From Dacryopinax spathularia (lineage: Eukaryota > Basidiomycota > Dacrymycetes > Dacrymycetales > Dacrymycetaceae): a stretch of 64,000 nucleotides of DNA. The stretch covers positions 1,240,001-1,304,000 of the forward strand of contig JBBPFI010000005.1 in assembly GCA_037974965.1 (NCBI GenBank). The letters are read 5' to 3'. A program made the translations under genes and the position numbers. Every line of letters begins with the position of its first letter. The first letter of the stretch is position 1. The notes under the pieces are model-generated. The model saw nothing but the letters and a program-made list of their open reading frames with translations, did not search any database and had not been told where the DNA came from. Shown here piece by piece: positions 10,900 through 59,649 of the stretch.

Positions 10900-12551
10900 A
10901 TGAACACAGGACTGTCCCCTACACTTCTCCTTTCCGCTGTGGGGCAGCGAGCCACGGCGGTACGTCCGCTGCACAACGGATGCTTGTATTTCCTAACGGC
11001 ATCGTCTCTTTTGCATTGCAGACGGTGCTCGGTGAGATCTTTCTTGCTTGCTGAAAGGAACCGAGCTGATCCGCGGAGGTTCCAGCTGCCTGTACAACAT
11101 TGATCGTTCGTCCCGCAGGTCGATCTAACTGCCAAGGTGCTGACTTCATGTTCAGGTCTACGACTACATCTTAACCTTGCGTCAAGAAATCATCCACGTC
11201 TGGCGCTCCCCAGTTAGCGTGGGAAAAGTGCTATTTTTTTTGGTACGATACTTCGCCTTTATTGATCTGTCTCTTCTTGACTGGCGTGAGCTCGGCTTTC
11301 GTGATCGGGTGATTACCCTTCTTATGAGTCCTCGCCGCAGATTACTTCGCCGTAACAAGTTCCTCTCCCTCCTGCAAGATTACTCAAACGATATTGATGT
11401 GTGCGCCGAAGGTATGGAGCGCCTGCATTCGAATACTGATGGACGAGCAGGTTTTCAGCTTGTGGGGATCCTAGGATCGTGCGCCGTAGTCGGTCTCCGA
11501 ACGTGGGCAATCTGGAACCGAAACCGCTTGTGCGCTGTCGTTCTTCTCTCGGCATTCCTCTGCTCGGTGGGCTGGGGCGTTGCAGACGTCGTTGTGTTTA
11601 CGGCGGCACTATCGGGCAAGCGCGCTTTCAATGTCTCCTTATCGTGACGCTGACCACCCACCCGTGTCTTCAGAATATGGCAGCCCGCTCGTGCCGATGG
11701 CTGGGTGCCTTTGGGAGACGTCCTCCGAGGCACTCCTTTTGATGCATGAGTTCTACATCGTCCTCGCCGTTTACGAAGCCAGTCAGTTGGACCTCCCTTC
11801 GAGCGACCTCTGGCTGACCGACTGACACAGTCATACTGCTGGGCACGCTGCTACGAGGGTTCGAACATTGTGGGTTTTAATAAGGCGACAGACTGGCATC
11901 ATCTCACGAAAGTGTTGAAGTGCGAAAGCAACCTGGATTGCTGGTGACCGTGCTGTATCGAGATGGTATGTCACATCGCTCGCCTCCCTGACTTGACATG
12001 GGCTTACCCGGTCCGCTCAGCCTTTTTAGCATCCTGCTTGCTGTCGGGTTTGTGCTGATGTACCCCATCACGACTACCTGCTCATTAGCCTAATCTTTGC
12101 TTTAGTCACTTCCGTCATCGCCGCTTACATGTTCGAGACAAACGTAATGCTGTACCGAGCAAGACTTGCGATGGCGCTAATAACTTCCCAGAACGCTGAG
12201 GTATTCGCATACGCCTTCTTCCATCGAACTATGACGGCCGTTGTATCGACGCGGATAATGTTAAACATTCGCGAAGTATCTACCTCAGCAAATCGAGGGA
12301 ACGTAACGTCTGAGTCAGTTGAAACCACAGTGCTCACTAGTGGCGTTGCGAATTCTACGGCGGCGAACGGGATGTGTAAGTGCTACATTCACCAAATGTC
12401 ACCGTGCGTTCCAATAATCACGAAATCCCGTAGCCCTTGGCCTGAGGGAAAGCTCGTGGTAGATTCAATGAGCTGGAAAACTGAAGTTTCTCATTATCAT
12501 TCGCTTTTTGTAGATTTCTCAGTAGGTAGCTCTTTCGAGATAGGTTTATAG
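10900..12551 (+). CDS. DUF6533 multi-pass membrane protein, copy 1 (subfamily C)
   Basis: Predicted integral membrane protein of the basidiomycete DUF6533 family; function unknown. Exon 1 is 10900-10959 (20 codons), then a 10-nt micro-exon 11022-11031, a 20-nt micro-exon 11086-11105, and the DUF6533 core exon from 11156 (VYDYILTLRQEIIHVW, then VGKVLFFLVRYFAFIDLSLL). Later blocks: GFQLVGILGSCAVVGLRTWAIWNR (about 11453 on), MHEFYIVLAVYEA, LLVTVLYRDG, and the C-terminal STRIMLNIRE at about 12250. The 3' end is uncertain: the terminal frame is open to 12551 but a donor-like GTAAG near 12375 may shorten it. Closest in window to copies 7 and 8. Confidence 0.7.
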
Positions 12552-13689
12552 ACGGATAAGCGGCTACTGCGCTGCATGGTCGCCTCCGCTGTCACGGTTG
12601 TTTATCGCAATCTGGCCATGCTCCTCGGATTCAAGGTGCTCGCCATAATACAGCACGATTTGATTAATTCGACAATCTGACCAAGGCGGGCAGAGCTTCT
12701 CTAAGGGGAATGATGGTGGATCCTTGGCATTCTTGCTGAGCTGTAAGACACCGCTCGAGATCGCTGGTCAATACTAAATAGTCCAAGTCGGATTTGCGAG
12801 TAAGAACGCGGCTCCCTCAGTTTGCAGCTTCTAGTCGCGGCAAGGTTCCTCCTTGTTCCACCTTCTGAGTCGTTCTCCATGTCTGCTTGCTGCGCGACAG
12901 CGCCTTTGTTGATCGAAGGTGTATTCTGCCGAGTAAGACCGAAAGACCGGCCGCTTCCTTCCAGGCACAGCACAGCCCGAGACCCACGTTGTCATTATTG
13001 ATGATCGTCATATCTGGTTCCGGCGCTAGCAACGTCAGAGGGGATGTCATCGGACCCTGAGGAGAGGGAGGTTGAGCACGCAACTCTATTGTCCCCTCTT
13101 TGCCATCCATGGTCCGGCGGTAGCGTTGGCGGGTCCCTGGACGCATGTGCTGCTCATAGAGGAGTGAGGTTGGTGCTAGTGAGGTACGCCGTTGTTTGGG
13201 GCTTCATTACGGCAGACCTCGCTCACTGGGGATCCGTTAGACCCAGGAGAAGGATATGGTAGTCTGGAACAAGCCTCATCCGGGAATACGCAACCAACAC
13301 CATTTGGAGCTAGAAGCCCAACCACCCATTCCAACCGTACGCAAATGGGTCATGCGTCCTCCTCGGCCCGCAGCTCATCCCCTCCATAGGCGCAAAGCAC
13401 CCGAACAACGCACCTGACCCCGTGCCGGCGGGACCCGCAATGCACGCTAAAGGCAGGCGCTAGCTCCGTCCCTGAGCCCTTATTCTCCTCCGATGGGTGG
13501 ACCAGCGAGGAAGTGTTCTATACTTAGAACTTCCCTTACCTAGTACGCTCCCCCACCGGGGCCCGCAGACCCAACGTGTGGTTTCCTGATATGGACTAGC
13601 GTGCCCGGAGGATTGGACGGAGAGAGCACGTTGGACGGCGTCATGCGGCCGTCATTCGTTCCTCGGTATGATACCCCTTCCTCAACGCA
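12552..13689. other. Intergenic about 1.1 kb, no gene recognised
   Basis: Upstream of the glycine-rich protein gene. No protein family seen on either strand. Confidence 0.5.
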
Positions 13690-13697
13690 TATATAAA
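13690..13697 (+). promoter_or_regulatory. TATA box of the glycine-rich protein gene
   Basis: TATATAAA lies 90 bp upstream of the ATG at 13787, followed by a C/T- and A/C-rich leader. A consensus TATA suggests a strongly expressed or inducible gene (inference). Confidence 0.6.
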
Positions 13698-13786
13698 CCC
13701 CGCTGACCTCGTCTCATCCCAGCTCATCCCCCATCTACACAGCGCATACACTCCACCCCACCACACTACAAGTACAGTAAAGCAAC

Positions 13787-14801
13787 ATGTCCGGGTTCCT
13801 TGATAAAGTGAAGGGCAAGGTCGAGGGTGCCTTGAACAAGGGCGACAACAACCAGCAGGGCGGTGATTCGGGCTATGGTGGTGACTCGGGCAACTCGTAC
13901 GGCTCGGGCAACACCGGTGGGGACTCTGGCTATGGCGGACAGCAAGGCGGCCAGGGCGGATTTGGCGGCCAGGGCGGGTATGGCGGTAACCAGGGTGCGT
14001 CCCTCCTCTTCTCCCTCTGCTTAGAAAGCGAGAACTGACGGTATATGCAGGCGGTGACTCTGGCTTCGGTGGCAACCAGTCCGGTGGCGGCTTCGGCGGT
14101 GACTCCGGTCCCACCGGCAACACCTATGGCGGCAACACGACCTCCGGCGGAGGGTTCGGTGGCGACTCGGGATCCGGCGGTTTCGGCGGTGACTCCGGCT
14201 CTGGAGGTCAGACCGGCTTCAGCCAGACCGGCTTCCAACCTACCGGAGGAGAGGGCAGGCATCATCACGAGTCCGGCGGCGGGCAGGGCGGCGGGTTCGG
14301 TGGCGACTCCGGCTCTGGCCAGGGAGGGTTTAGCCAGGGAGGGTTCGGCGGGGACTCTGGGTCTGCCGGACAGGGCGGCTTCAGCCAGGGTGGATTCGGG
14401 GGCGACTCGGGCTCTGGAGGCCAGGGAGGGTTCGGGGGCGACTCTGGTGCTGGCCAGGGGGGCTTCGGCTCGAACCAGGGCTACCAGGGTGGAAACCAAG
14501 GATACGGCGGTGACTCTGGTTCCGGTCAGGGAGGCTTTGGAGGCGGAAACCAGGGCGGTTTCGGTGGTGATTCCGGTTCCGGCCGAGGAGGGTTCGGCGG
14601 CGGCAACCAGGGTGGGTTCGGTGGTGACTCCGGCTCGGGCCAGGGCGGCTACGGTGGCCAGGGTAGGTGCTTTCTGCTTTGACTGGCTGAAACTCTTACT
14701 GATATCGGTTATTAGGAGGCGACTCTGGATTCGGCGGCAACCAAGGAGGCCAAGGCGGGTACGGCGGTGGGGAGGGACACCATCATCGCCGCGAGGAGTA
14801 A
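13787..14801 (+). CDS. Glycine-rich low-complexity protein with GGDSG repeats
   Basis: Three exons, 13787-13994, 14051-14662 and 14716-14801, keep one frame and give about 301 residues. The N-terminus MSGFLDKVKGKVEGALNKG is a short charged amphipathic segment. The rest is many imperfect copies of a unit built from GGDSGSG and GQGGFGG with interspersed NQG and SQGGF, ending in a His-rich basic/acidic tail (HHHRREE). No signal peptide or membrane segment, so cytosolic. Composition (Gly, Ser, Gln, Phe/Tyr, Asp) resembles intrinsically disordered, phase-separating or desiccation/stress proteins. I do not recognise a named family and give no function. Long overlapping open frames in other frames and on the minus strand are by-products of the repeat. 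Confidence 0.85.
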
Positions 14802-15036
14802 GCGCTGGATGGATGAGAGAGAATGGCTAAACTACGAGATCGCAATCCTCGTGTAAGAATGATCTTGAAAGGGAATGAATAAATGCGACAATCAAGGAAT
14901 ATCGAGCTCCCCTGCGTTAAGCCGCAGTGACCATGTCTACAACAAAGAAGTGCGGGTGACGTGGAGTTCAAGAGTGACGCATCACCCCCTTTCAGCGACA
15001 ACCAAACATTGTAACCGGACGACGGGTATTTCGTGG

Positions 15037-16428
15037 TCAGACGACGTGCATCAAAGGCTCGTTAGAGGTGGCAAGCGACGTTGCCGTTCTTGTCGTCCTA
15101 GTCGCAGCAGTCGTCTCGGTAGCCACCGTACAGTCCCATCCATCTAGCCCGGTTGCTGCTTCACGGATGTTCAGGATGATGCGAGAGGGAAGATTGGACG
15201 TCAAGACACGGTATGTGCAGCTGAGAGCATAACTGGGTTCCCCCTGATATGGCCAGTTTCAATCCTCCTTAGGCGCAATTGTGATTGGTATAAGGAGCAG
15301 AGGCACGTACCGTACTGAGAACAAGGACAACGTTGGTATACCCCACGACTGCAAACGGCTGTGTAAGCAGCTGCGCCGGCTCCTCCGAGTAAAGTACGAA
15401 CAAATCTGCAGAAGGAAGGAAAGAAAAGCTGCGCGATTGATGTAAAAATATGCCCGCCCTCGTAAGCATAGGAAGCCCCTACCATCCCGATATAAAACGG
15501 CTGTGAGACCTTGAGGGTTCTGCCGCACTGGAAGAACATGTAAGCGACGTACACGGAAGACCACGGCTACGCGCCTAAGGCTTACGATGTTGGATACCCT
15601 TTGCAACCGTGAGCAGGAAGAGAGCTGTCTTCCTCATATCAGTTGCGTTCTTGCAAGACAGAGACGAACTAACGCAGCTGCAACGTGGCACTCACGGCAT
15701 ATGACTTCCACAGGTCCTCCTTGCTTGAGGGAAAATCGAAGCAGCCTTGCAGCAAAGGAATTCGGGTTAAGGCACCCGCCGATTGCTGATATGCAAGAAG
15801 GTAGATGCACGCCACAGTGCCAATCAGCATGAGTAGCAGCAGAAACATCGCCACCAGCTTGCTGCGACCCCAGAGTGCCCAAGTACGCAACCCGTAGACC
15901 ACGTCGGCTAGAGAGCCGGAGAGCAGAAATATGACGATGAGATACAACGCTGCAGTGTTGCAATCGACAGCATAGGTTCCGCCCATGAATGCGTCTGCTA
16001 TTGACGGGACGATGTGAGAACAGGCCGCAAGCGGGGTCATTTACAGACGTGCCAAAAGGCCACATCCACAAGTCTAACACCGGAAGATAGCGAACACCGA
16101 GGAAGATGACTTTGCCCGGTGTCCATCTTGCGAACCAGACGTGTTCCACTTCCTTTGGAAGCATGAGGACATAGTCATACGACTGCCAGACCTACATGCT
16201 GGAGGGCCGATGATCTGTTCAGGTCGTGGAAAAACGTACGAACAAAGTAATGCCCAGTACTGATATACATCAGCTAAGTCGACGGACGGCGACAATACGG
16301 TTTACCTGTATCGCACTATCGTCCCGACATATATGAGCAGTCCCCGACCACAGCAAGTCAAGCGTACTCACAGCACCAAAGCGGGCGGCCGTAACGGTCG
16401 CTCGCCAGGTACCTTGGCTGACTGCCAT
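15037..16428 (-). CDS. DUF6533 multi-pass membrane protein, copy 2 (subfamily A)
   Basis: Exon 1 is 16428-16372 (MAVSQGTWRATVTAARFGA), followed by the 10-nt micro-exon 16315-16306, the 20-nt micro-exon 16259-16240 and the core exon from 16182: SYDYVLMLPKEVEHVW, then WTPGKVIFLGVRYLPVLD. Subfamily A traits follow: DAFMGGTYAVDCNTAALY, DVVYGLRTWALWGRSK, PLLQGCFDFPSSKEDLW, FLLTVAKGIQH, QGLTAVLYRDG and the C-terminal block SRIILNIREAATGLDGWD before a Thr-rich tail and TGA 15039-15037. Function unknown; several hydrophobic segments mark an integral membrane protein. Closest to copies 4 and 5. Confidence 0.75.
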
Positions 16429-17004
16429 TGACCTAGCGCGTTAGATCCATCGGGTTGCATAGTAGGGGGAGACTCCGTCTTTGTACTCTCGTCATGAGGG
16501 AGCAGCGCCACAGGAAAATTGTGTTGACGTTAATTGCACCATATCATAGAAACCATGAGGTGGTTGGTTGTCTGAATCAAAGTTTCTGCGAAATCAGGAT
16601 GGAGAACTGCCCTGAAGGATGATGGACCGCGGGCGGACTGAAAGACGCGGGTTTCAAAGGCGTGCAGAATTGTTCGACAACACGAAAAGCGGGATAGCTA
16701 AGATATTCGCAGCCTGCCGCCGATTCCATGTCTGAAAACTGGTGCGGTGGGCAGTTGCCGCGGGTTTGGCGGATTTCAAGCACAGCGCAGCGCACAGCGG
16801 CAGGGATGATCTGCAGATTGAGAACAGGAACGCCTATAAGAAGGCAGGGCATCCATCCTGGACATCTACGAAGTGGGGCAAAGAGCACGAGCAGGGACCT
16901 GAGACGATCAAATAGCGAAGCAGATGTAAGGACAAGTTAAGCGATAGGTCTTGACGTCCCGAGAGTTGCTGAGAAAGCCACAGTTACTCCTCACCAGAGC
17001 GAGG

Positions 17005-17180
17005 TCGTACCGGTTCATGTAGAGTTGCTCCAGCGTAGTCTGAGTCCCACTGAGACGCGGGGACGTCCTCGCTGAATTTGGCGGCGCTCCACCCATGGGG
17101 AAGTAGAGTAGAGGAAGGAATTGCTGATATCCAACAATCTACTAGGGACGAGCTCGTTGTACTCCTATCCGATCTGAAGG
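17005..17180 (-). pseudogene. Fragment of a FAD/NAD(P)-binding oxidoreductase relic (copy C)
   Basis: This stretch aligns by eye with 38110-38285 of the larger flavoprotein relic at 37.7-38.6 kb: both share the minus-strand pattern KFS-DV-P/A-W-D-DY and a GAAGTAGAG-AGAGGA stretch on the plus strand. It lacks the flanking parts of the gene. Alignment is short and gapped. Confidence 0.4.
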
Positions 17181-17284
17181 GGCCGGCGAGTCTGCGTTGG
17201 CGCTGAGCGTGCGGAGGTCATGAGCGGTCAGGGCATGGCAACCGCGCCGGCGCCGACTGTAAGGACGCAGTTGGAGGTTACAGG

Positions 17285-17965
17285 ATCATGCTCGTGAAGA
17301 GAGCGCGACTGGACGAAGCGGATATGATTGGGGACTCCATCGCCGCGGGGGAGCAAATGAAGACAGTCGAGAATGTTCTGTCCGCCGTTACCTCTGGACC
17401 GTGGACAGCGAGGGATGTTTAGTAGTGCGCGGGAAGACGGGGTGCTGAGATGGTGGACCTGCGCGCCCTGCTCCCCACCCTCGTCTCTCCGGCAAGAGTA
17501 TGGCGCTCTCACCTCCAACACCACACGCTCTTCGTCACATCCCGCAAAACAGTCAGCGTCATCCCCGCCTCTTCCCCCAGCTTCTTCCCTCCTCCGCCCT
17601 ACCCAAACTTCCCATTCTCGCCCAGCAGCGCGAGCCTTCACCCGATCCTACTCGACCGGTATTTTGTGCGGAGTTGGGCGGACCCGTGGACCAGATGTTT
17701 GATTGTACTACGAGGGAGAAGAGGGACGTGTATAAGGGGCATCATGGGTCTGTGCATGCATGGAGTATAGCCCAGATGGGGAGATGTATACTACTGGGAG
17801 TGGTGAGCGCCGTTCTTTCTAGCACCTCCACGCCTTCGTCATGGTGTTTCTCCGCTACTTGCCCCTCTTTGGTCTTCTCCTGCTTGAGAGACGTCGACGC
17901 GGGTGCAGAGGACGGCACGATCTGGCTGTGGCAGACTACGCCGGGAAAGACGTTGGCGGGGCGTA
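17285..17965 (+). pseudogene. Decayed 3' half of a STRAP-like WD40 gene
   Basis: In alternating frames the plus strand reads SSAREDGVLRWWT, SSASLHPILLDRYFV, REKRDVYKGHHGSVHA, MEYSPDGEMYTTGS and EDGTIWLWQTTPGKT. Order and wording follow the last blades of STRAP (SASLHPEKEFLV..., [38 protein letters not shown]). Blocks are broken by frameshifts and stops. TTGS and EDGTIWLW are separated by a sequence with a GTGAGC donor and GCAG acceptor, so an intron is retained and the copy arose at DNA level, not from mRNA. The 5' half is missing. Confidence 0.65.
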
Positions 17966-17969
17966 GAGA

Positions 17970-19512
17970 TGGACGTAAGGCGTTGGATGGGGAGCTGCGT
18001 TTGAACGCGGCGGATATTCGGATGCCAGATCGACGCAGAGCTGCAATTGCAAAATCTCGTATCAACAGCCCACACTGCCCGCAGCCAGGAAGACGCCCTG
18101 CACAGTATGAAGAGTGACTGGCTCCTCCCTCCTTGGACTGCCCATCACACATGACCGTCAGGAGGGCTGGGAAAGTACTAAGCAGCACTCGATCCTACAG
18201 GGCAAGTACGCCTCCAACCGGTGCTCGGATTATCCCAGTATTAGATCATCATCCCATTCGATTCGTCGCCTGCGCTAGCATCAGTAGATCCATTACAGCT
18301 CGCTCGAGTCTCAATAGGTTCTTACTGTTCTTTCCCCCCGAGGTATTCGAGTTCAAGGCGGTGACACCGAAGTTCAAGCGAGCTACACAGGTGTGTATTG
18401 CCTTCGCATCCAGTCGCTTGATAAGTCGCTTGCTGGGAAGAGGCAGATAATGGTGATGTCGCTCACATGTGGTCGTGTGATCACAATCCACATACCCTCT
18501 GGTTGGAACGGAACCCTGCTGCTACTTCTTTATCCACCCCATCTCATTCACAATGATATTGACAGTATTGTCTACTTCTCCAAGATTAGCCACTATGTCG
18601 GTTGTTCTGATGACCAAGTGAACCGCCTGCCGCTTGAAAGGCGGCGTGGTTGAGGGCAGTGCTCATTCTTATCAGGACGATGGGCTCGCAGACATCTTTG
18701 CATTGATACCGGTGTTGTTAGCGGATAGCGGAATGAAGCTCGGTGGCCTCGGGACCGTAGTCGCAAGGCAATTCTGTTGGGAGGCACATGTCAAGAGAAG
18801 TCAAGCGAGATGCGTTGAGGTGTGGGAACTGTCCAAGAATGCGGCAATGCAGGAGATTAGGCGGCCATCAATGCTGGTTAAGGGTATTCCTGTTCACAGC
18901 TCACAGGCACGTCGTCTGGCTTGTGCTTCGCGCTCGATAGGTCGGGCAAGTAGAGTAGTTAGCTGTCAATAGTTGTTTGACTCATCCTATATTGGCGTAT
19001 AGACAAGAAATACTGGAGATCCATGCTCGCCGTGCAGAGTAGTAAGGCGGTAGAAGGGACAGTCCCGACAGCACCAACAACCTGGAGTCGGCGCTAAGCA
19101 CGGCTTCAAATCTGTCCCACCGCACACTTCGGCCTCTCCCTTTCTTCATTCTCTAGGAGCTACTCCCAGGACTCAGCCAGCTTCATCAAGATGTCCTCTT
19201 CCACTAGGTACCGCACTGGCCAACAGGCAGCAAATCCATCGATGTGAACTGCTTACAGGCTGTGTTCATGGTGTTCCAGAATACAACTGGGACTGCCTGC
19301 CAGCTGGAGCACAATATCAGAAGAGGCCCGTTGGCGGCTATGATGTCCACAGCATGCCTCATGTCAGATCTCCGCCAGTCTGATATCGTCAAGGCGCCGT
19401 CTGCCAGATCTACTCGATGTGCATAATTGGGAAGGTCAAGGATCGGACTTTGGGAATGCTCGGAATTGCAGGGCACGCGCACAGGTGCCAACTGTTGGGA
19501 GCACACAAACGC
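17970..19512. other. About 1.5 kb without a recognised gene
   Basis: Between the STRAP-like relic and DUF6533 copy 3. Several open frames of 80-112 codons show no family resemblance. May hold further relics too decayed to recognise by eye. Confidence 0.45.
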
Positions 19513-19519
19513 TATAAAA
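19513..19519 (+). promoter_or_regulatory. TATA box of DUF6533 copy 3
   Basis: TATAAAA, 57 bp before the ATG at 19576. Confidence 0.5.
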
Positions 19520-19575
19520 GTTTCCCTATTGTCATGGCACAATCTTTGCGAGTGGGTTGAAGTCGTTCTACAATC

Positions 19576-21086
19576 ATGGATCCTGGACTAGCGACAGAAC
19601 TACAGGAACTAGCTCGACTGGTCAGCAGCGAGCGATTAGTTGGTGTGAGTCCCTTTTCCCTCCCTCGTTTCCCTCAACAATGGATTGATTCTCGTCCATA
19701 GGAAATAATGGGTGGGTAATCTCCCTATGGGGAACAGTTACTAACACCAAGAACGATGCTCTACCAGTTGCCAGCGCGGCCTTCATAGTAAGTGTACGGG
19801 CGGCAGTCGGCGAGATAGTGCTGACTCCTTCCGCTTCAGGCTTACGACTACACTCTCACCCTCCCCAGGGAGATCAATGTGGTATGGCGAACGCGCTGGA
19901 CACCGGGAAAGATACTGTTCCTCATGGTCCGCTATACGCCCTTTCTGTATCTCGGAACGATGTCGTGTGCGTCCTTCCAAAAGTGTGCGCGTCTGATTCG
20001 GGGCACCGATACTTACTTCAGTCGTGCTGATGTACTCACCCACTCCTAAGCCCTGTATATTTCTATCCCGGGCGTATTCGTGTATGTCCCTTAAAATCAC
20101 CTTTCCGAGGTGCTATGGACTGATTGTTCGTTCAGGGCTATCATTGATTCAAATCATGCTATCCGATTCTGTCATGGCTCTTCGGACCTGGGTACTATGG
20201 GAGCGCGAGGGGGCAATCATGACGATCGTTGCACTTGCGTGGACAGTCGATTTGGTCCTTTCGAGCTATTATGTAGACCGCGCAGTGAGCGTATTTTCCT
20301 GTAAGCATATCCTGTCTGTTTCCTCCTACCCACGGCTCATTTCTTGGCTGCAGTTGTAGGAACGCCCCCTGGGTTGGATGTTCAGGGTTGCTATGTAAAC
20401 GATGTAGGGGGCGCTAATCCCTTCTATTCCGGACTTGGCATCTCCTACATCATCGCTGGTGTCTACGAACTCTGTACGGAATCTCTTCTTAGCCACTCCA
20501 CCCCAGTGTCATGCTGACCCACGGCAGTGATCTTTTCGTTGACCTTTGTTCGCGGGTTCTTGTACTGTGCGCAGTTTATCTACTCCAGGAATTTCGGTCG
20601 TCATGACGCTGCCGGCAGGGAAAGGTGGCTCTGAGACAAAGCTCCTCAGTGTGCTTTATCGCGACGGTAAGAGAGTATTCAACCGCAAGAACCGTGCTGA
20701 TTCCTGGAGCAGCGTTCGTGGCTTCTAGTGTTTTCTCCGGTAAGGGCCGATATGTATACCTTGCAAGCCAAGACAAACGCTTAGGCTGATAAAGTGATCA
20801 TCCTCGTACAGATCGTTCTGACGGAGTCCGGGCAAGTAAGTCGCTGTGTCTCACGGTCATTCACAATGTCTCATGAGCATAACAGGAGGTTTGGTCCCAG
20901 GGATTTTGCGCGGTATACACAGCTATGAAAGTTGTCTTTCCGACCCGCATCATCTTGAATATCAGAGAGAGCGCCCTTATTTTGGACGCATGGGACGTGC
21001 CCAACCCGGTGCACGGTCCGTCTCAAGAGGCACAACAAGTGCAGCACATCCAACCGGACTCCGACTATCCTTCGAACGTCCCATAA
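19576..21086 (+). CDS. DUF6533 multi-pass membrane protein, copy 3 (subfamily B)
   Basis: Exon 1 19576-19644 (MDPGLATELQELARL...), 10-nt micro-exon 19702-19711 (EIM), 20-nt micro-exon 19768-19787 (completes to VASAAFI), core exon from 19840: AYDYTLTLPREINVVW, RWTPGKILFLMVRYTPFL. Then SDSVMALRTWVLWEREGA, a GVYEL-type segment near 20460, SVLYRDGK at about 20650, and the C-terminal block PTRIILNIRESALILDAWD ending before TAA 21084-21086. Lacks the DAF-G/DC segment of subfamily A. Function unknown. Closest to copy 6. A short fragment of its middle part recurs at about 35.0 kb. Confidence 0.75.
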
Positions 21087-21560: not shown

Positions 21561-21569
21561 GTTACCAGC

Positions 21570-41521: not shown

Positions 41522-42951
41522 TCAACAGCTCTCAGCGCCAATCGGACTATCAGCAGTATCCGCATCTTTGCTCTCATAGCCGCTGTCTCCCTCCGTCTCA
41601 GCTTTCCTTGCGGAACGCAGATGCTCCATCGGTACACTGGTTGTTGCCATGGTTGTCGTTGCCCTCGTCGTGGTATCTGTTCCTACTGTACAGTCCCAGC
41701 CGTCCAAGGCCGTTGCTGCTTCACGGATGTTGATTATGATACGGGACGGGAGATTGGATGTAAGCGCGCGGTATGTAAGGTTGAGGGTATAGTTCGGCTC
41801 TCCCTAATGGTCGATCAGCTTGTTGTAGTGTATATGCGTATGCGTTACATACCGTGGAGCGTAAGAGGATAACGTTTGTATAACCAACGCCTGCAGCATA
41901 ATCATCTCAACGAAGCTCTTTGGGGTGGGTGGAACGACGAACATAGCTGGGCAAGGAAGGAAAGAAACGCTGGGAGGTGTGTCAGAAGCATTGTGTAGGT
42001 GCCGGTTATGGCGTGCTTACCATCCCGATACAAGACGGCCGTAAGACCTTCAGGATGTCGCCGTACTACGAGAACGCGTTAGACTCCCATACGGAGCAGA
42101 GGTCCGGTCTGCTCACAATATTGAACGCCCTTGGCGAGGGTCAATAGGAAGAGCACTAGGGCACATGAGCCAAGGACCCGCAGAGCCGACATGACAACTG
42201 ACTCAGCTGGAAACCCTCCGTCAGCAGATATGCCTTCCAAAGACTATCATCGCTGGAAGGGAGGTCGAAGCACCCTTGTAGACCCGGTATACGTATGGCC
42301 GGCTCGCCGGACTGAAGGATGACGAGGAGGATCACGACTGCGGCCGTGAACCCAAGCAGGGACACCAGAAGGAAGATACCCAAAGGTTTGCTGCGAGTCC
42401 ATAGTGCCCACGTCCGCAGCCCATAGACGAGGTCCGCAAGGGATGCAGAGACCAAGAATACCACAATCGAGTAGTACGCAGCGAAGTTGCAGTCCAAGGG
42501 GAGATTAGCCCCCATGAAGGCATCGGCTGTTCGGGAGGTATCAACAACGGAAGTCTGCTTGGGAGGTGTAGTTCCACGCACCAAATGGCCATATCCACAA
42601 GTCCACAAATGGAAGGTACCGTACAATGAAGAACAGCACTTTGCCAGGGCTCCATCTCGAATACCAGACGTACTCGATCTCCTTCGGCAACATCATCAGG
42701 TAGTCATATCCCTAGCGGCGACATTCAGAGCTGTCCCTCCGATCGGGATGAAACACATACGAATAGCGTTATACCAACCACTTCGAGCGGTCAGAACCAT
42801 TCCTCCATTCACTTTTTGCTGTGCTCACCGGTATCGTACTGTACAAGGACTGGCACATTAGCCTACGTAGATTGAGGAGTATGTGCGTACTCACGCTGGC
42901 AAAGCGAGCTGCCTCAGCTGTGAAGACCAGCGTAGAATGGTCGATGTCCAT
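41522..42951 (-). CDS. DUF6533 multi-pass membrane protein, copy 4 (subfamily A)
   Basis: Exon 1 42951-42895 (MDIDHSTLVFTAEAARFAS), 10-nt micro-exon 42838-42829, 20-nt micro-exon 42780-42761, core exon from 42711: GYDYLMMLPKEIEYVW, RWSPGKVLFFIVRYLPFVD. Then DAFMGANLPLDCNFAAYY, DLVYGLRTWALWTRSK, PGLQGCFDLPSSDDSLWKAY and the C-terminal SRIIINIREAATALDGWD with a Thr/Ser-rich tail ending before TGA 41524-41522. Function unknown. Its upstream flank faces away from the F-box gene. Confidence 0.75.
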
Positions 42952-48317: not shown

Positions 48318-49778
48318 ATGGATCAAGCGTCGCTGAGGAAGGCGGTCGATGCTGGTCTTTTCTGCGCGGTACGAGCGTCTTCCAGACCATAGGTTGCATC
48401 ATTCTGATGACGCTGTGCTTGATCACAGTTCGATACGGGTAAGCTGGGGCTAATTGCCAGTGCCTAATATGGTTGTTCTGACTTCTGATGCATTGAAGTC
48501 GCGGGGATGACCTTGGTGGTATGTCTTATGTGGCACTCCCATTCCCGTAACCTGATGCTGACACTTCTTGCAGGCATATGACTACCTTCTCATGCTCCCC
48601 AAGGAGAAACGGTACATATGGTCCGCCAAATGGACTCCCGGCAAGATTGTCTTCCTGCTTGTTCGGTACATGCCGTTCATTGATATGCCACTCTGGCCCT
48701 TCGGTATGGTACCTCAACTCGTATTTTCCGAGTTGTAGTTGACGCCTTGACGTCTAATAGGAGATGCGTTCTTCGGTGGAAACTTGCCAATAGACTGCGA
48801 TACCGCGACCTACATCACCCTTTGCAGCCTTATTATCGCTTGCTTCTTAGCGGATTTCGTGTATGGCTTGCGGACATGGGCGTTGTGGAGTCGCAACCGC
48901 TGGTTCGGTTGGTTCTTGGTCTTCTGCGGCCTGGGGTTCAACGTCACTTGCATCGTTCTGTTGGTTGTGGTGCAGCCAAATCTCCCGGGTAAGTCTTTTC
49001 TTTACGAAACGAGTCGTCCAATGCTGACCGCCAGGCAGCCCAAAGAATTGACGGCCTTCCTGGATGTTTCATTCTACCAACTCCGTCTAACGAGATCTGG
49101 AAGGCATACTTGTTGACCACTTGCTTCCAAATTGGTACGTGCCGATACTTCCGCTTGTGAGCTTTAGCTCAACTTGGTGCAGTTCTGTTCTTGTCAACCC
49201 TGGTGAAAGGAGTACAACACTATTGTAAGACTGTCGGGTACTCTGCCGAGTCACTCGGTGTTCTCACCATCACCATCCTCAGGGCTGCGCTCGCCAGAAG
49301 CGCTTACTACTGTTCTATACCGAGACGGTCAGTGGATCTACCAAGGTGGTTTGGCTTTGTAACTGACATATTACCCGCAGCTTTTCTCTCCTACCTGGCT
49401 CAAATTTGTTCGTCCCCCTTTCCTTAAGCAAAGCGTCTTCTGACTTGCCGGCTCACAGGTATTGGTCTATTAAATGTGGTACTATTGCTGACCAGGGTGC
49501 GTGCCTGGGAACTGCCATCAGCGCCGTCGCCCTCGCCCGTTACTAAATCCGTCGTATAGCAAGACATTAACTACTCGATGGACGCGACCTATCGAGCACT
49601 GCTCTCTGTCCTACCTTCTCGCATTATCCTGAATATCCGGGAAGCCGCCAACGCCAACTCGCTTGACCAGTGGGACGTGACTATGGGAGGGACAGGGATG
49701 ACGACGAGGAGCTCGGATATCCCGCTGCAGAGTATGGTGCACAGGACGGTTGACAGCGATGAGACGGGATGGGAGTGA
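48318..49778 (+). CDS. DUF6533 multi-pass membrane protein, copy 5 (subfamily A)
   Basis: Exon 1 48318-48368 (MDQASLRKAVDAGLFCA), 10-nt micro-exon 48429-48438 (FDT), 20-nt micro-exon 48499-48518 (completes to VAGMTLV), core exon from 48574: AYDYLLMLPKEKRYIW, KWTPGKIVFLLVRYMPFID. Then DAFFGGNLPIDCDTATY, DFVYGLRTWALWSRNR, GLPGCFILPTPSNEIWKAY, VLFLSTLVKGVQHY, TVLYRDG and SRIILNIREAANANSLDQWD, ending TGWE then TGA 49776-49778. Hydrophobic segments span most exons. Function unknown. Confidence 0.78.
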
Positions 49779-51865: not shown

Positions 51866-52684
51866 CGCTCAGCCAAGGTAAGTCGTCCAGAAGCGGTAAT
51901 CATCTGTCCAAGAATGGCTCGATATAAATCATGGTTGTCCCTGCTTGCGGAGGACCGGACCGTTGTCGATGACCGCCCTATCCACCATTCCTGTCACGAA
52001 CGTGCATATTGGCGCGAGGATTGCGTGTGTGGTCGAGATCGATGGTTTCTGGTGGAGATGGAGGAGCGAGTGGCTGTCGTGACGTGGGAGGCACGGGACC
52101 TGCAAAGGGATTGACAGTGTGACCAATGGGCGCCTATCTGTACCCTTTTCTCTTGACAGCTGCCACAACTCGGGCTAAACATGCCGCGCATCCCGAACCC
52201 GAGCGCTCGTATCAAGATTGGTGGACCAATACGATCTTGACGATGAGCAGTAGAACTGCTGGAAATGGGCTGTCTCTCAAGAGGAAGTCGTGACATGTCA
52301 GATTCACAACCTCCTGCCACGGAACATGCTCACGGGGTATGATCAATCGCTTACCCTAGCGCCATTCTTTGTTGAGAAGAGTTGGCCTACACTCCAGACC
52401 TGTCTTCTCTGCTGCCTCGCGACCCTGGATCACAACGAGAAAATGCACCTTTTCGCCTGCAAAAACGCTTCTTCCTGGGAAGAAGACCTCGTTTCCATCG
52501 GAAGCTTCGGCTTCATGCGGGTCAGCTGCGCGCTTCCTGATGTCTGCACTGCCGAAAGGTGGATCATCAAATGACGGCATTATCTGATACAGCCCTTCAA
52601 AGAACGAAGGCAGAGACTATATATTCTACCTGGGCTCTTTCAAAATCGACCATAGCCCCTTCCATTCAGTTGTACCTGTTTAAG
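51866..52684. other. About 0.8 kb divergent promoter region, no gene recognised
   Basis: Lies between the 5' ends of GH79 (minus) and DUF6533 copy 6 (plus). No coding signal on either strand. Confidence 0.5.
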
Positions 52685-54209
52685 ATGGACGCAGGCGAGC
52701 TGCAGGAAGTTGTCCGGGATATGAGACTGATTGGGGTGCGTCTGAGCTCACTCTTCGTGTCATCGCGGCTCGCCTGGCTGGCATCGCCGGGCGAATAAGC
52801 ATGGCTAACATTCTTACCTGTAGGACATCATGGGTGAGCTGGTGTAGTCCTCTGGAAGGGGTTGGAGAATATCTTTTTGACCACACACTCTCAACAGTCT
52901 CCAGCATGGCAATCGTTGTAAGTGCAAGCTGACACCGAGATCGTCCTCAACTGAATCACCCTCGTATGTAGGCGTACGATTATGTCGTCACCCTCCCTTC
53001 CGAAATCGAGTTCATATGGCACGCACGATGGACGCCAGGCAAGATCCTCTTTCTCTTCGTGCGCTACGTGCCGTTCGTCTTCCTCGCATCGATGTACTGT
53101 GCGTCCGTTCCTGTACGCGTGGGCGCTTAGCCCGTCCTCATTCTATGGTTCTGCCAGATCCGTTCATCGCTTCTCCTAACGCGGAAGTCTGCCAGTATGG
53201 AGTTCGCGCGTACTCCAGTAGGTGACTACTCGCTCCTCCCGTGTTATCTCGATCTGACGATTGCGTAGTGGTAGGACTCTTCCAATGCATGCTCGCCGAT
53301 ATCGTCATCGCCCTCCGCACCTGGGTGCTCTGGGAACGAGCGAGACTTGCCCTGCTACTTATCTCCGTAGCATGGATAACCAGTCTAGCCGTTGCGCTGT
53401 ACTATGAGGTTCCCATTGTGGAGGGACAGGAGTGTGAGTCTTCTCTGTTCACCCTTCATGAGGAATGCGAGCTGATATATTGTAGATTATATCGGTTATC
53501 CCCCTCAACTGCATATCCCTGGTTGCTTGCTGGGCGGACCCGTGAGCGCTTCGACTGTCAGGGCGACATTCATCATCTGGGGTGTATACGAGCTTGGTGA
53601 GCCTTGATGCGATCATGTTCTCTGCTGCATCGCTCATGGAAACAGTGATACTGAGCATGACGGTGCTGCGAGGACTGGTTCATTGTACGTAGTAGCCATT
53701 TCTCCTCGAGACATCTGCTTGATACATCGGGGCGCAGTGAGGCATGGTTCTACGGCAAAGCTTGTGACTGTCCTTTATCGGGACGGTGAGCCAATGCAAC
53801 CTTGTCTTGCCGTCATCATCCCTAACGTTCTTGCAGCATTCATGGCTTCCATCTGCTTTGCCAGTAAGCTTCCCCCGTTTTCTCGTCTAATTCAGCCCTC
53901 ACACGCAGCTTCTTGAAGGCGTCACTATTGTCATGATTATCCTCACACAGAGAGGACAGGTACGTCCCTTTCCACACGAGTCATGCCATGCTCTCAAGCC
54001 TTGCCCAGGAAACGTGGGCCGCAGGAGTGAGTTCAACATACACCGCCCTCAAATGCGTCCTCCCCGGTCGCATCGTACTCAATATCCGAGAGAGCGTAAT
54101 GAGCCTCGACGGATGGGATATCCCCACTTCTGTCCCTCCCATAACAATCAGCCGGGATGCTGTCGCGAGTTCTCAAGCGGGCACGAGCACTACGACTACT
54201 GGGTTCTAG
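52685..54209 (+). CDS. DUF6533 multi-pass membrane protein, copy 6 (subfamily B)
   Basis: Exon 1 52685-52735 (MDAGELQEVVRDMRLIG), 10-nt micro-exon 52824-52833 (DIM), 20-nt micro-exon 52898-52917 (completes to VSSMAIV), core exon from 52972: AYDYVVTLPSEIEFIW, RWTPGKILFLFVRYVPFV. Then MLADIVIALRTWVLWERARL, LVTVLYRDGE near 53765, and GRIVLNIRESVMSLDGWD ending before TAG 54207-54209. Closest to copy 3. Ends 255 bp from the convergent copy 7. Function unknown. Confidence 0.75.
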
Positions 54210-54463
54210 GATGGTTTCTTTTGGGATTATGGACGTTGGCACGACAAGCTCGCACCTTCCGCTGGGGAACTAGGAGGGCACGATATGATTGATGTGGCAT
54301 GTTTGTACGATTTATATGTAACTTGGGATTTTTTTACTCATTATCTGGATCTTGGGGCATCTTACCAGTTTTGAACTTGACGGACGCGATGATCATCACA
54401 CACGGGTAGAGATTCGGTTGTGCGGGGCGCGCGACAGAGCGCGTTTTTGTCTTTCAACAGCGT

Positions 54464-55976
54464 TTAAGGATTATATTCATTTGTTCTTGTCGTCCGAACC
54501 TCTGTGGAACCGGCGCTGTCTCGTTCTAGAGTTCTGATCCAGCTTCCACCCGTCCTCATCGTAACGTCCCAGGCATCGAGGACATAAGCAGCCTCGCGAA
54601 TGTTGAGGACGATACGGTTCGGTAATACGATCGTTAACGCTCGATGGATGAAGGCGTAGGCAAACAGCCAGGAATTCTGCAGAGATAGCTGTCAACACGG
54701 CTTGTCCTGTCCTAGAAAAGAAAATGGACATACATCGGTTCCGCTCATGTAAGCGGCTAAAATGGAGGCAACTGACGGTTGAATAGATTCAATGAGACTT
54801 CTGCTGCTGTAGTCGCTTGGCTAGCAGACGAACCGGACAAGCTACAACATGTCATGAAGGCTTTTTCCCTGAGTTCAGAGATATAAGTTGCCGGGTGGAT
54901 AGATATGAACGCACCATCCCGGTAGAGCACTTCGGTCAACAACGAGGGCTGTTTACGAACTAGGAGGTCTCAGTGACCGGTTGAAGCTCTGAGAGTACAG
55001 CTTTTACAATGTCGAATGCCTTGTAAGAGCGTGGCAAGGAAAATGACTAGAGACGGGTTGTCAGCATGAACTTGCTTCGGATTAGCAGGAAATACGAACC
55101 TGCTTCATACGCTGTCAGAGCAATGTAGAAGGCTTGCATGTTGTAAAGCCCGCTCCATGTAGTATTTAGTGCGCATCCCGGAATGACTGACCCAACCAGC
55201 CAGGTATGGTCTGGAACCTGCGTCAGCCAAGAAAGGTACATTTTGCAGGATGACGCTCACTTGTCATCCCATTACTGAAATTGACAACATCCGAAAGTCC
55301 TCCTCCTGCTACTGCGAAGAACGCCAGGCAAAGGAACACCCCGCACGCTCGGTCTCGATTCCAAATAGCCCAAGTTCGCAGACCCACGATAAGGCATGCG
55401 CCCAGGAGACCGAGAAGCTCGAGACCTGAAACGTGGAATGAGCGCTAGTGTGGGCTGCGAAGAGGGAAGGCTTTACACAGGATTACAATCTCTACCACGC
55501 TGCAAGCAGCGTCGCTGGGATCCATTGTGAAGTAATCTTAACCCTCATATCAGTAATGACATGATCAAGGAAATGATGCACCTACTCCAGTCTAAAACGG
55601 CCAGATCCGCAAAAGCCAAATAACGAACAAGAAAGAACAGTATCTTGCCCGGGGTGAGCGGGGCTGCCCAAATGTACATTACTTCTTGCTGAAATGTAAG
55701 GATGTAGTCGTAGACCCATCAGCGGTTCAGCAGAAATGTCGAGTAGGGTAAGGAGCGACGCTCACCACTAGGGAAGAGCATGCAACTGATTCGCCTGTGA
55801 GTTAGTGGGCGAGTCGGTACACCTTTATGCAATGCATACCTAGAACTGTCTGGAAGGCAAGATGATAAGCTTCTGTTGCAAAGTAGGCTGCCAAATGCGA
55901 TTCCGCTCACCGAGGTGGCCCGATGGTTAGGCGCCCATTCTAGTAAGTATGTCGAGTCCTCGTTCAGATCCATCAT
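54464..55976 (-). CDS. DUF6533 multi-pass membrane protein, copy 7 (subfamily C), with a lost acceptor
   Basis: Exon 1 55976-55911 (or from the second Met, 55973), 10-nt micro-exon 55849-55840, 20-nt micro-exon 55785-55766, core block VYDYILTFQQEVMYIW from 55715, PLTPGKILFFLVRYLAFAD. Then GLELLGLLGACLIVGLRTWAIWNR, MQAFYIALTAYEA, LTEVLYRDG and NRIVLNIREAAYVLDAWD, ending NEYNP then TAA 54466-54464. The two bases before the core exon are GG instead of AG, unlike the other seven copies. An in-frame AG at 55690-55689 could serve but would remove the YDY motif. The rest looks intact, so it may be a recent pseudogene or use another site. Confidence 0.65.
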
Positions 55977-56588
55977 TGGATATTTTTCGTGAGAGGCCAA
56001 CCAAAGTCTGGTGCAACGAGCCGGGGACGGTTGAATGAGACTCCAAGGTTTATGAGCGTGGTTTCCATGCTCCCCACCGCCCGCAACTGCGGGCTCTTTG
56101 TGTGCGCAGCGAACGCCCCTATTCCCGGTGAAAGGGGCTCCCCGGAAAGGCATTCTGTCATGTCCGCAACATAGGCTTTCCGTGTCATCTGGTAGAATTC
56201 AGCATCACCACGAGCAGGATAGATATGAATGACTTGACGAGGAGACGCTGCGGTCGCAACCGCAGCGACCGGGCAGTGCAGCGTCTGATGGCGATGTGCA
56301 CGAGATCATTTCAGGCACAAACTCCTCTTTCATCGTTTTCCTCTGTCTGATTTACGACAGGTTGCCGCTGAGCGAGGAAGATGCGTCCTACACTTGATAA
56401 TGAGTGGGAATCTTCGGATGCGGCCGCATTAATCTGGTCATTTGAGCACTTCATACACGACTGTTATTGAATCCAACTTGACAGCATTCATCAGGGTACA
56501 TGAAATTTAGACGTCCTCCACTATGCCACGTAAATCAGCACGTAAATCATTACGTCGCATAACTCGTGAAATTCGAAAGAGCTCACCT
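55977..56588. other. About 0.6 kb intergenic, nothing recognised
   Basis: Upstream of copy 7 and downstream of the MMTAG2-like gene. CACGTAAATCA occurs twice near 56527-56550. Confidence 0.45.
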
Positions 56589-57549
56589 TCATACTCTCCC
56601 ACGCTCCCAACGGTCGCCCTCCCGCGGGCCAGGTCTATCTCGTTCTGTATTGGCTTCCCACCTTCGCCTGTCTCGTTCCCTCTCCTTCCGCATCTCCTCC
56701 TCGTCATACCTGGTCCCCTTCCCATCCCGATCGTCCCTGGGATCTCCACGTGCAGAATACCGGTCGCGAGTGGTGTCGTCGCGTCGATTCGCGTCTCGCC
56801 TCGGACTACGCGAACGGTGCCGCTCGTCGTGTGCGTCGGAGCGTCGCCTCCCTATGGGAGATTCAGATCGATGTCCCCGTCGCCTCCTGGAAGGTGTACC
56901 ATCCAGACTAGGACTTCTTCCACTGGGACCGTCGTGACGCTCATGGTCGTCCGATGCGTCTGATCGTCGACGGCGGATTGGTGAAGGCAAACGATCCACG
57001 TGGTGTCTTCTAGGCGACGGTGACCTAGAGTCGTCCGAATATCGTGCAGGAGATAGACTTCGTCCCTCCCGTCTCGCTCGCTCGCGACGACGTTCCTCTC
57101 GTCTCGCCCTTCGCTCCTCCTTCCGTCTACGCTTCTCTTCCTTCCGTCTGCGCTTCTCTTCTTTTTCCCGCGCTTTCTCCTCATCCACACCGGACATTCC
57201 TTGTAATGGCGAAGTAGCTTCGACTTGCGGGACACGGACAGCCGGCTTGAATCCCCTGGACTCGAGGTTAGCAATGCCGAATAACGCGATATGACCCCAC
57301 ACACAATGCAACCGCGAGCGCATCCTCTTCTGCCTCTTTGATCTTCCTTATTTCCTCTCTCTTCTCTGCATCGGTCCTCTCCTTCTCCCGAGTGTACCAA
57401 TGGATGTCCTTGTTCTTCTGCCAACGACCGACAGGCGCATTGATCGAATGACCAAGATAGTTCTCGCGATCCTTGTCTTGTGTTACATCCGACCACTTGA
57501 ACTCAGCCGCACCTCCTCGAGTTCCACCTCGGACCGGACCATTGTACAT
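56589..57549 (-). CDS. MMTAG2-like protein (kinase phosphorylation domain, SR/RD-rich tail)
   Basis: ATG 57549 begins MYNGPVRGGTRGG, then WSDVTQDKDRENYLGHS and APVGRWQKNKDIHWY, an almost exact match to the N-terminus of multiple myeloma tumor-associated protein 2 family members, a small conserved nuclear family. After one intron (about 57310-57260; donor and acceptor uncertain) comes a highly charged tail: lysine/arginine/glutamate coiled stretch (EEKRRRKEEKRRRKEERRAR), then Arg-Ser and Arg-Asp rich repeats (RSPSPRR, RSRSPRR, RDDRDGKG) as in splicing-associated factors. Nuclear, RNA-processing role is inference from composition. Stop at 56589. Confidence 0.82.
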
Positions 57550-58103
57550 GACAGCAGGTGTAGTAGACGATGGGCAGGATGCTCAACAGCGGGCGTAACT
57601 CAAGGTGGTGGTGGCGCAGCACTCTGACGATGAGGACGCGCTTACCCTATCGGACATAAATAAATTCAATTTAACGCCGCTTACCGTGGGCGGCTTTCTC
57701 CGGTGCACGACCATCAGCTCACACTCGGACCCATCTCATCTCTCAAATAACGATCGGACATCATGGGCAGCTTATGGCCTCATCCTGATCAAGCACGCAC
57801 AACAGTTATGGCTGTGAAAGAAAGCAATCGTAACATGCTATGAGAGCTCTTCTAGAGGAAACACTGTCGGATGCGGCCCGAGGGCTGGTGGCTCGGCACT
57901 TCTGGTTACGTCCCAACGATCCACATGCACGGTTCTTCGTATATTCAATTTTGGTCGATGCTATAACATGGATGTACGTATACACCAAGGGGTAGGCGCC
58001 TCTCGCTCGGCCGTGCCTGATCATTTGTCGTGATTCTCCTCTTCATCCTACTGCCCCTCCTTCTCGCCAGGGCTGTCTCCGCCCCGCGGGTCGCTAGCCT
58101 GTT
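57550..58103. other. About 0.55 kb intergenic, nothing recognised
   Basis: 5' flank of the MMTAG2-like gene and 3' flank of DUF6533 copy 8. No coding signal. Confidence 0.45.
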
Positions 58104-59649
58104 CTACAACGAACGGATCGTGACATCGTCCGACATCTCTACCAAAGGGAACACGCCCGGAAGTGTCCCGTTAAGAGCGGTGTCGGCGGCTACGTCCGCC
58201 CCATCCAGAGTATAAGCGGCCTCTCGCATATTCAACATGATTCTTGTGGGAGCGACGACCATGGCCGCTCGATGAATGTAGGTGTAGGCGAATGGATAAG
58301 GGTTCTGAAAGAGGATCAGAGCGTGGTTTAATAGGCAATGGAGGATTTTCCAATACCCCGGTCTCAAACATCACCGCCGAGAGAATGGATGTGGCTGTTT
58401 GCGGTCAAGTCATGAGGTGAGCGAAACAGGTCTGAGGGAAGGTAGGACAACTGACTGGAGATTACGCAGGAGGCTACAAAGGCTGGGCGCACGTCAGCGC
58501 TGGCTGACCGAATATCCGCAAGGGAAGAACATATGCGTACCGTCCCGATATAGCACCGCCGTCAACAGCGCTCGTTCCCGTCGCCCTGAAGATGCTAAAC
58601 CCTCCATCCCGCCCAGAGGATGCGGCTTACTACTTACAGTGTCCGATTCCCCTTATCAAAGTTGCCAAGAGAATTACTGCACGATATGTCAGACAAGGAG
58701 GGCCGCGACACCTACACATGGGTGGACCAACCTGCTTCATAGACAGCAAGTGAGATGTATATATCCGCAATGGCGTTCAAGCCATCGGAAGACGCCGCAG
58801 TCCTGCAGCCGGGGAGGCCAGGAACCTGAGGTAGGTCTGGCTTATCAACCATTCGTTAGCTCCGCTTCTGATTCATGAAGGTAGACAAAACAAGCCCACG
58901 CACCAAGTGCCACGATTGTTTGGCTGTAGACGACAACGCCATGAATCGACCAGCCAATCGCTACCAAGAACGCCACACAGAGTATGATTGCGCATATGGT
59001 ACTCCGATTCCAGATGGCCCAAGTCCGCAAGCCGACGACAATGCAAGCGCAAAACACACCCACAACCTCTGTATCTGCGAAGAAATTGAGTCAGCATGTT
59101 GTGGGAAGCTCGTACATGATACGGGATCGTTCTTACAAAGCGCCATTGTGCTTACGACTTTGCAGAACCAATCGGTGGGAGTTAGTGTACCGTACACTAT
59201 GACAGCATCTCAGTCGATTGAAGGCGCAGCTGGTTGTGGACGGCTGGAATTGGAAGGAGCTCACCCCAAAGAAGTACGGTGTAATCGACAAAGGCCACGT
59301 AGCGGAGGACGAGGAAGAGGACTTTGCCCGGTGTCCACGACGCGCCCCATACGTATCGAACTTCTTGCTGGAGGGTGAGCAAGTAATCATAACTCTGACG
59401 ACAGGTGGTTAGTCGGGGATGACATCCTCGTGCTAGGGAAACTCACTATGATTGCTACACCGGCCACTGCGCGGAGCTATAAGTATGCCTCTTCGTGGGA
59501 GCAACAGTCGTACGTACTAACGGCGGACTGGGGAGGCATGATGATCAGAGTCAGCAAGCGGGCAGCCATTGAGGACTCGGTCCACCTACAGTTGTTACTT
59601 GATGATTTGCAGCCCAGAGCTGCAGTTCTTCCTGAAGCGACTGGCTCAT
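58104..59649 (-). CDS. DUF6533 multi-pass membrane protein, copy 8 (subfamily C)
   Basis: Exon 1 59649-59599 (MSQSLQEELQLWAANHQ), 10-nt micro-exon 59527-59518 (SAV), 20-nt micro-exon 59466-59447 (completes to MAGVAII), core exon from 59394: SYDYLLTLQQEVRYVW, WTPGKVLFLVLRYVAFVDY. Then EVVGVFCACIVVGLRTWAIWNR, LTAVLYRDG and TRIMLNMREAAYTLDGAD, ending IRSL then TAG 58106-58104. The phase-1 base left by the 10-nt exon is A here and G in the other seven, so the codon across that junction is Met where five copies have Val, one Ala. Function unknown. Confidence 0.75.

What the first reader, a model, noticed from the sequence alone, without database searches (positions are those of the whole stretch)
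10900..59649. All eight DUF6533 genes share an invariant pair of micro-exons, 10 nt then 20 nt
In every copy, exon 1 (17-23 codons, phase 0) is followed by exactly 10 nt, then exactly 20 nt, then the exon beginning just before YDY. Positions: copy 1 11022-11031 and 11086-11105; copy 2 16315-16306 and 16259-16240; copy 3 19702-19711 and 19768-19787; copy 4 42838-42829 and 42780-42761; copy 5 48429-48438 and 48499-48518; copy 6 52824-52833 and 52898-52917; copy 7 55849-55840 and 55785-55766; copy 8 59527-59518 and 59466-59447. Subfamily consensus of the 10-nt exon: TNCGATACNG (A), GANATNATGG (B). A 10-nt exon is below what gene finders usually accept, so N-termini of this family may be widely mis-annotated. 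Together these exons encode the first hydrophobic stretch (for example VAGMTLV).
Basis: partly seen in the sequence, partly recalled or inferred. Interest (0 to 1): 0.85.

Follow-up and report, generated by a model that had tools for sequence, protein, structure and literature searches.

The report
Paired tiny exons in fungal membrane genes
A large cluster of related membrane-protein genes in a probable jelly-fungus genome really does split the start of its first membrane helix over a 10-base and a 20-base exon, inherited from a common ancestor and apparently spliced in as a rule; this is a tidy, well-supported case of a known kind of gene structure rather than a new mechanism.

Summary
The exons are real. 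All 16 lie at the stated coordinates between AG and GT. In 30 clustered paralogues, 10 nt then 20 nt is the commonest of 1,600 length pairs (27 of 30 with GT donors, one of these spurious; shuffles at most 4). Spliced alignment to proteins from elsewhere recovers the pair at the same coordinates in 7 of 8 window copies, and in 23 of 33 genome copies against 0 of 264 shuffles. Copy 7 lacks the AG before YDY. One paralogue lacks the intron after the 20-nt exon, another lacks both, frame intact. Seventeen of 21 relevant short-contig proteins carry the ten encoded residues; the other 4 start later; none skips them. They form the first half of TM1 of a predicted seven-helix, GPCR-like protein.

Corrections: the pair marks one clade (33 catalogued copies on contig C5), not DUF6533; none of 20 hits outside it has all three introns (partly by eye). 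"Widely mis-annotated" is weak: 12 of 14 annotated dacrymycete relatives contain the stretch. Best reading: constitutive micro-exons, probably made by intron gain around an older intron.

The parts
10900..10959 (+). copy 1 exon 1 (20 codons, phase 0 end)
11022..11031 (+). copy 1 10-nt exon ACGGTGCTCG
   Evidence: AG/GT flanks; recovered by a profile of other organisms' proteins
11086..11105 (+). copy 1 20-nt exon
11156..11285 (+). copy 1 YDY exon
16306..16315 (-). copy 2 10-nt exon TGCGATACAG
16240..16259 (-). copy 2 20-nt exon
16053..16182 (-). copy 2 YDY exon
19702..19711 (+). copy 3 10-nt exon GAAATAATGG
19768..19787 (+). copy 3 20-nt exon
19840..19966 (+). copy 3 YDY exon
42829..42838 (-). 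copy 4 10-nt exon TACGATACCG
42761..42780 (-). copy 4 20-nt exon
42582..42711 (-). copy 4 YDY exon
48318..48368 (+). copy 5 exon 1 (17 codons)
48429..48438 (+). copy 5 10-nt exon TTCGATACGG
48499..48518 (+). copy 5 20-nt exon
48574..48703 (+). copy 5 YDY exon; the modelled gene has 11 exons, 48318-49778, 301 aa, PF20151 at 58.4 bits
49381..49407 (+). copy 5 27-nt exon in the 3' part (same length in all 8 window copies)
52824..52833 (+). copy 6 10-nt exon GACATCATGG
52898..52917 (+). copy 6 20-nt exon
52972..53098 (+). copy 6 YDY exon
55840..55849 (-). copy 7 10-nt exon ACAGTTCTAG
   Evidence: AG/GT flanks; not recovered by the profile
55766..55785 (-). copy 7 20-nt exon
   Evidence: AG/GT flanks; not recovered by the profile
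55586..55715 (-). copy 7 YDY exon by homology; the intron before it ends in GG, not AG
59590..59649 (-). copy 8 exon 1 (20 codons)
59518..59527 (-). copy 8 10-nt exon TCCGCCGTTA
59447..59466 (-). copy 8 20-nt exon
59265..59394 (-). copy 8 YDY exon

Best explanation
The 10-nt and 20-nt segments are constitutive coding micro-exons of one clade of DUF6533 genes (33 catalogued paralogues clustered on contig C5 of a probable dacrymycete fungus). Introns here are short (median 54 nt in the models), so each is most likely recognised across the intron (intron definition), and exon size does not limit splicing. Together the two exons give exactly ten codons (phase 0 - phase 1 - phase 0) that form the N-terminal half of the first transmembrane helix of a seven-helix, GPCR-like membrane protein. 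Their lengths are invariant because the paralogues inherited the intron positions and a change would break the frame or the helix. Evolutionarily, the intron between the two exons is the older one (also seen in DUF6533 genes on contigs C2, C12, C13, C16); the 10-nt exon arose when an intron was inserted 10 nt upstream (shared with the C16 gene), and the 20-nt exon when another was inserted 20 nt downstream (C5 clade only). Shown: positions, frames, statistics, distribution among paralogues, presence of the ten residues in proteins from elsewhere. Inferred: constitutive inclusion in this organism, intron definition, direction (gain rather than loss).
For: All 16 exons flanked by AG/GT. (10,20) is the top length pair, 27 of 30 with GT donors (26 after setting one spurious chain aside), 30 of 30 with GT or GC, against a GT-only shuffle mean of 0.89 and maximum of 4. 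A profile of proteins from elsewhere finds introns at 18.0, 21.1 and 28.0 in 23 of 33 cluster copies and 7 of 8 window copies, 0 of 21 other matches, 0 of 264 shuffles. Codon-position entropy 1.15/1.03/1.85 and 0 of 33 in-frame stops. In C5:1183807 the intron after the 20-nt exon is absent and in C5:1200703 both are, with the frame kept to the base. 17 of 21 relevant short-contig proteins have all ten residues without a gap, preceded by 6-39 residues; 6 of the 17 sit on contigs too short for the CDS plus 449 nt, the smallest total intron length in 22 models of this genome. Intron at -23 without the other two in the C12, C13 (two) and C2:175634 genes; -33 and -23 in C16; all three only in the C5 clade (partly by eye).
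Against: No transcript of this organism was available. Copy 7 has no AG acceptor before YDY. The profile alignment misses the full triple in 10 of 33 copies (two lack introns, one is copy 7, seven are diverged, have GC donors or were not reached), and with stiffer intron penalties finds it in only 12 and 8 of 33. By splice-site score alone (10,20) ranked first in 14 of 32 copies. Short-contig proteins were read as proteins, not contigs; 'spliced' rests on length arithmetic for 6 of 17, and how many introns their own genes have is unknown. The profile proteins were found with a query that already contained the stretch. The gene tree rests on about 46 residues, so gain versus loss is not settled; C5:1200703 may lack the third intron primitively.
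Confidence: 0.9

Rival explanations
1. The pair is a regulated cassette: both micro-exons are included or skipped together (30 nt, phase 0 to phase 0), switching between a protein with a full TM1 and one lacking its first half.
For: Skipping either exon alone shifts the frame (10 and 20 nt), skipping both keeps it (lengths and frames). A microexon switch is described in a fungus, Trichoderma Xlr2 (PMC11121469, passages).
Against: None of 21 relevant short-contig proteins and none of 14 annotated ones joins exon 1 directly to YDY; 17 of 21 and 12 of 14 contain all ten residues, the rest start too late to tell. Two paralogues lack one or both introns and so cannot skip the pair. Any exon pair with phases 0-1-0 has this property.
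Confidence: 0.05
2. The segments are intronic chance matches; the true mRNA starts elsewhere or joins exon 1 to YDY.
For: A 10-nt exon is weakly constrained, and 20 to 483 length pairs fit a copy.
Against: the paralogues without the introns, and the residues in proteins from other sources.
Confidence: 0.02
3. The three-intron arrangement is ancestral for DUF6533 and the unsplit genes lost introns.
For: Exact intron absence does occur inside the clade; PMC3584928 (passages) discusses both gains and losses in basidiomycetes.
Against: The intron after the 20-nt exon is in 0 of 20 non-cluster hits and the one before the 10-nt exon in 1 of 20 (C16), while the middle one is in 5 of 20 (partly by eye); 11 of the 20 have a different intron, at -44 or -12.
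Confidence: 0.25

Closest known systems
Conserved plant microexon clusters (PMC8831610; ten passages seen)
   Same: Very small coding exons (1-15 nt) at conserved places in protein families, with fused-exon relatives; includes a rice transcript with two adjacent microexons (5 and 12 nt); many were missing from annotation.
   Different: Plants, RNA-seq-supported; here a fungal multigene cluster, no RNA data, and annotation mostly includes the segment.
Microexons in Phanerochaete chrysosporium P450 genes (PMC1184071; three passages seen)
   Different: Spread over P450 families, not one invariant adjacent pair.
Trichoderma virens Xlr2 microexon switch (PMC11121469; passages seen)
   Same: Fungal microexon missed by annotation.
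   Different: Condition-dependent, single gene, ascomycete; no sign of regulation here.
Coprinopsis SNB1 / snowball, DUF6533 7TM protein (PMC10949477; one passage seen)
   Same: DUF6533 domain, predicted seven transmembrane helices, extracellular N-terminus.
   Different: Agaricomycete gene; its exon structure was not examined here.

Membership tests
DUF6533 (PF20151) | Profile match above the curated cut-off (24.1 bits) | tested here: met
   54 of 54 listed matches over the cut-off, 8 in the window; copy 5 spliced protein 58.4 bits over residues 20-63
Coding micro-exon (<= 30 nt) | Length, splice-site flanks and reading frame | tested here: met
   16 of 16 in the window with AG/GT flanks; frame and codon-position signal
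Coding micro-exon (<= 30 nt) | Included in mature mRNA | tested here: inconclusive
   Indirect only: ten residues present in 17 of 21 relevant short-contig proteins, 6 of those 17 on contigs too short for introns of the size seen here; no RNA of this organism
Regulated (switch-like) micro-exon | Alternative inclusion between conditions | not testable with these tools
   No RNA data; no skipped form seen among the 35 proteins compared (21 short-contig, 14 annotated; 6 of these start too late to tell)
G-protein-coupled receptor-like seven-helix protein | Seven transmembrane helices in GPCR arrangement | tested here: inconclusive

The most novel reading that the evidence does not exclude
The 10+20-nt pair acts as a coordinated 30-nt in-frame cassette whose joint skipping, across a receptor-like cluster of more than 30 genes, makes a second topological form lacking the first half of TM1.
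Probability: 0.04. Interest if true: 0.75.

Novelty: new member of a known kind. Interest (0 to 1): 0.38.

Why it matters
It gives a clean, many-copy natural example in basidiomycetes of how tiny exons may arise (an older intron flanked by newer ones) and how stably they are inherited, with intron-less paralogues as built-in controls. It is a good test set for gene finders and for whether intron definition tolerates two consecutive micro-exons, and it fixes the N-terminus of a poorly known fungal receptor-like family.

Tried and rejected
A hexamer-based gene finder trained on long ORFs gave implausible models; replaced by hand reading of copy 5 and the profile-based spliced alignment. A script stopped on an error after 9 genes; searches covered the rest. 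One search was an abortive script that read only its own command line and gave nothing. The structure job was asked for twice before it was ready. The chain scan reported a (10,20) chain in C5:1219908 that contains a stop codon; read by eye, the 10-nt exon there uses a GC donor, as in three neighbours. In one search, allowing GC donors also raises overlapping variants ((10,2) and (14,20), 25 of 30 each) and was not tested on shuffles, so the GT-only figure is the sharper test. In one search the (10,20) chain was present in 27 of the 32 C5 hits examined and ranked first by splice-site score alone in 14. Two C5-cluster hits gave no chain there because no AG lies before YDY (C5:1183807, copy 7), and C5:1200703 and C5:1372551 were not among the 32. 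The domain tree used 46 of the 54 hits, I did not look at its support values, and it places C1:2662296 and C2:3096948 oddly inside the cluster, so I lean on intron positions. The profile used 13 of the 17 proteins (left out: P0001, P0005, P0010, P0011). Rows left out of the short-contig count: P0026, P0027, P0030 (distant); they too contain the stretch, so with them it is 20 of 24. Left out of the 14 annotated: P0025, P0028, P0029 (not dacrymycete); two contain the stretch and P0028, a partial Mycena protein, has a four-residue gap in it. Nothing on DUF6533 micro-exons was found in print (open-licence papers only; listings, and passages in six papers).
Full report
What was checked. The window is G000:C5:1240001-1304000 of a 29.2-Mb genome; a PF20151 (DUF6533) search lists 54 matches in it, 8 in the window. 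The closest annotated proteins are from Dacryopinax primogenitus (61% identity) and Calocera, so the organism is probably a dacrymycete (inference).

The exons are there. In the seven copies whose chain is complete, exon 1 (from a suitable ATG) has 17-23 codons and ends in phase 0, and the 10+20 nt give ten codons followed in phase 0 by xYDY. Copy 7 is the exception: the intron before its YDY exon ends in GG, and the next AG lies 27 nt into the exon, in frame.

More than chance. For the 30 C5 copies with an AG three bases before the Y codon, I listed every pair of exon lengths from 1 to 40 nt that AG/GT sites allow with introns of 42-90 nt. The pair (10,20) is the commonest, 27 of 30 with GT donors; the mean over all 1,600 pairs is 1.2 copies; in 100 dinucleotide shuffles (10,20) averaged 0.89 and never exceeded 4, and no pair exceeded 7. 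With GC donors allowed it is 30 of 30, though overlapping variants reach 25 of 30 and no shuffle was run for that version. One of the 27 is a spurious GT chain with a stop codon; that copy's 10-nt exon, read by eye, has a GC donor. The catalogue of 33 cluster copies (26 automatic, 7 placed by eye) shows third-codon-position variability (entropy 1.85 against 1.15 and 1.03), no stop in frame (0 of 33; 14 and 2 of 33 in the other frames) and a hydrophobic translation only in the proposed frame.

Independent test. I built a profile from 13 proteins of other sources (alignment A2; 13 of the 17 found with the copy-5 protein as query) and aligned it to the genomic DNA with an intron-aware dynamic programme. 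Stiffer intron penalties lower this to 12 and 8 of 33, as expected for a 10-nt exon that must pay for two introns.

Natural controls. In C5:1183807 the intron after the 20-nt exon is absent; in C5:1200703 both introns are absent and the 30 nt run into the YDY exon with the frame kept to the base.

Evidence from elsewhere. The three protein searches returned 41 distinct proteins. Of 24 on short contigs from jgi/lgn sources only, I set aside 3 distant ones; of the other 21, 17 contain all ten positions without a gap directly before the YDY position and 4 (P0001, P0011, P0024, P0038) begin inside or after the stretch and say nothing; none joins exon 1 to YDY. Six of the 17 (P0003, P0006, P0015, P0017, P0023, P0032) lie on contigs too short to hold their CDS plus 449 nt, the smallest total intron length among 22 models of this genome, so they come from spliced or intron-poor sequence; the intron number of their own genes is unknown. 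Of 14 NCBI-annotated dacrymycete proteins, 12 contain the full stretch; P0039 starts after it and P0041 inside it; P0012 has three residues before it, P0022 an odd-looking first exon, P0005 looks like a fusion of two genes, and P0037 is one residue short before the FDY. So mis-annotation exists but is the minority in this sample.

Distribution in the genome. Relative to the first base of the Y codon the introns are at -33, -23 and -3. C5:1372551 lies in the cluster and by eye has a similar pair but no YDY. Of the 20 matches outside the cluster, I read 9 with an intron at -44, 5 at -23, 2 at -12 and 4 with none nearby (partly by eye). The C16 gene has -33 and -23, hence a 10-nt exon, followed by a 27-nt exon whose intron lies 7 nt further down (by eye). 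The simplest order is: -23 first, then -33 (10-nt exon), then -3 (20-nt exon) in the C5 clade. The short-domain tree is too weak to prove the direction.

How it most likely works. The introns in the 23 models with all three introns have a median of 54 nt (43-109; the programme allowed 42-110), which suits intron definition, under which exon size is not limiting (general knowledge, not tested here). The invariance needs no special cause: shared descent plus frame and helix constraints. Joint skipping would be in frame, so a switch is conceivable, but nothing seen supports it.

Known or new. Conserved microexons, including an adjacent pair, are documented in plants with pervasive mis-annotation (PMC8831610, passages); microexons are reported in a basidiomycete P450 family (PMC1184071, passages). 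No paper found describes this pair. It is a new, well-documented member of a known kind.

Noticed in passing
55716-55765 (copy 7, minus strand): The intron before the YDY exon ends in GG instead of AG; copy 7 may be dying, may use an in-frame acceptor 27 nt downstream, or the base may be a sequence error.
   Followed up: partly
12021-12047, 15402-15428, 20713-20739, 41943-41969, 49381-49407, 53837-53863, 54834-54860, 58456-58482: A third small exon, exactly 27 nt, is modelled in all 8 window copies and bounded by the same introns in 30 of 33 cluster copies, next to exons of about 39, 45-48 and 38-41 nt.
   Followed up: partly
C5:1183807, 1217010, 1219908, 1225425, 1236105 (outside the window): The intron after the 10-nt exon has a GC donor in 5 of the 32 catalogued copies that have this intron, against 0 of 31 for the intron after the 20-nt exon.
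   Followed up: partly
L048 (C13:746751 and 749863), L049 (C2:175634): Three DUF6533 genes of another subfamily share their own modelled 17-nt micro-exon just after the LEDE/LDQE motif.
   Followed up: no
contig C5, about 1.18-1.66 Mb: The window is part of a cluster of at least 33 DUF6533 paralogues on both strands over roughly 0.47 Mb.
   Followed up: partly
L023 (C5:1488715-1491715): 1,286 bases of this locus read N, next to a DUF6533 copy; the search reports an implausible 21,533-aa open frame there.
   Followed up: no
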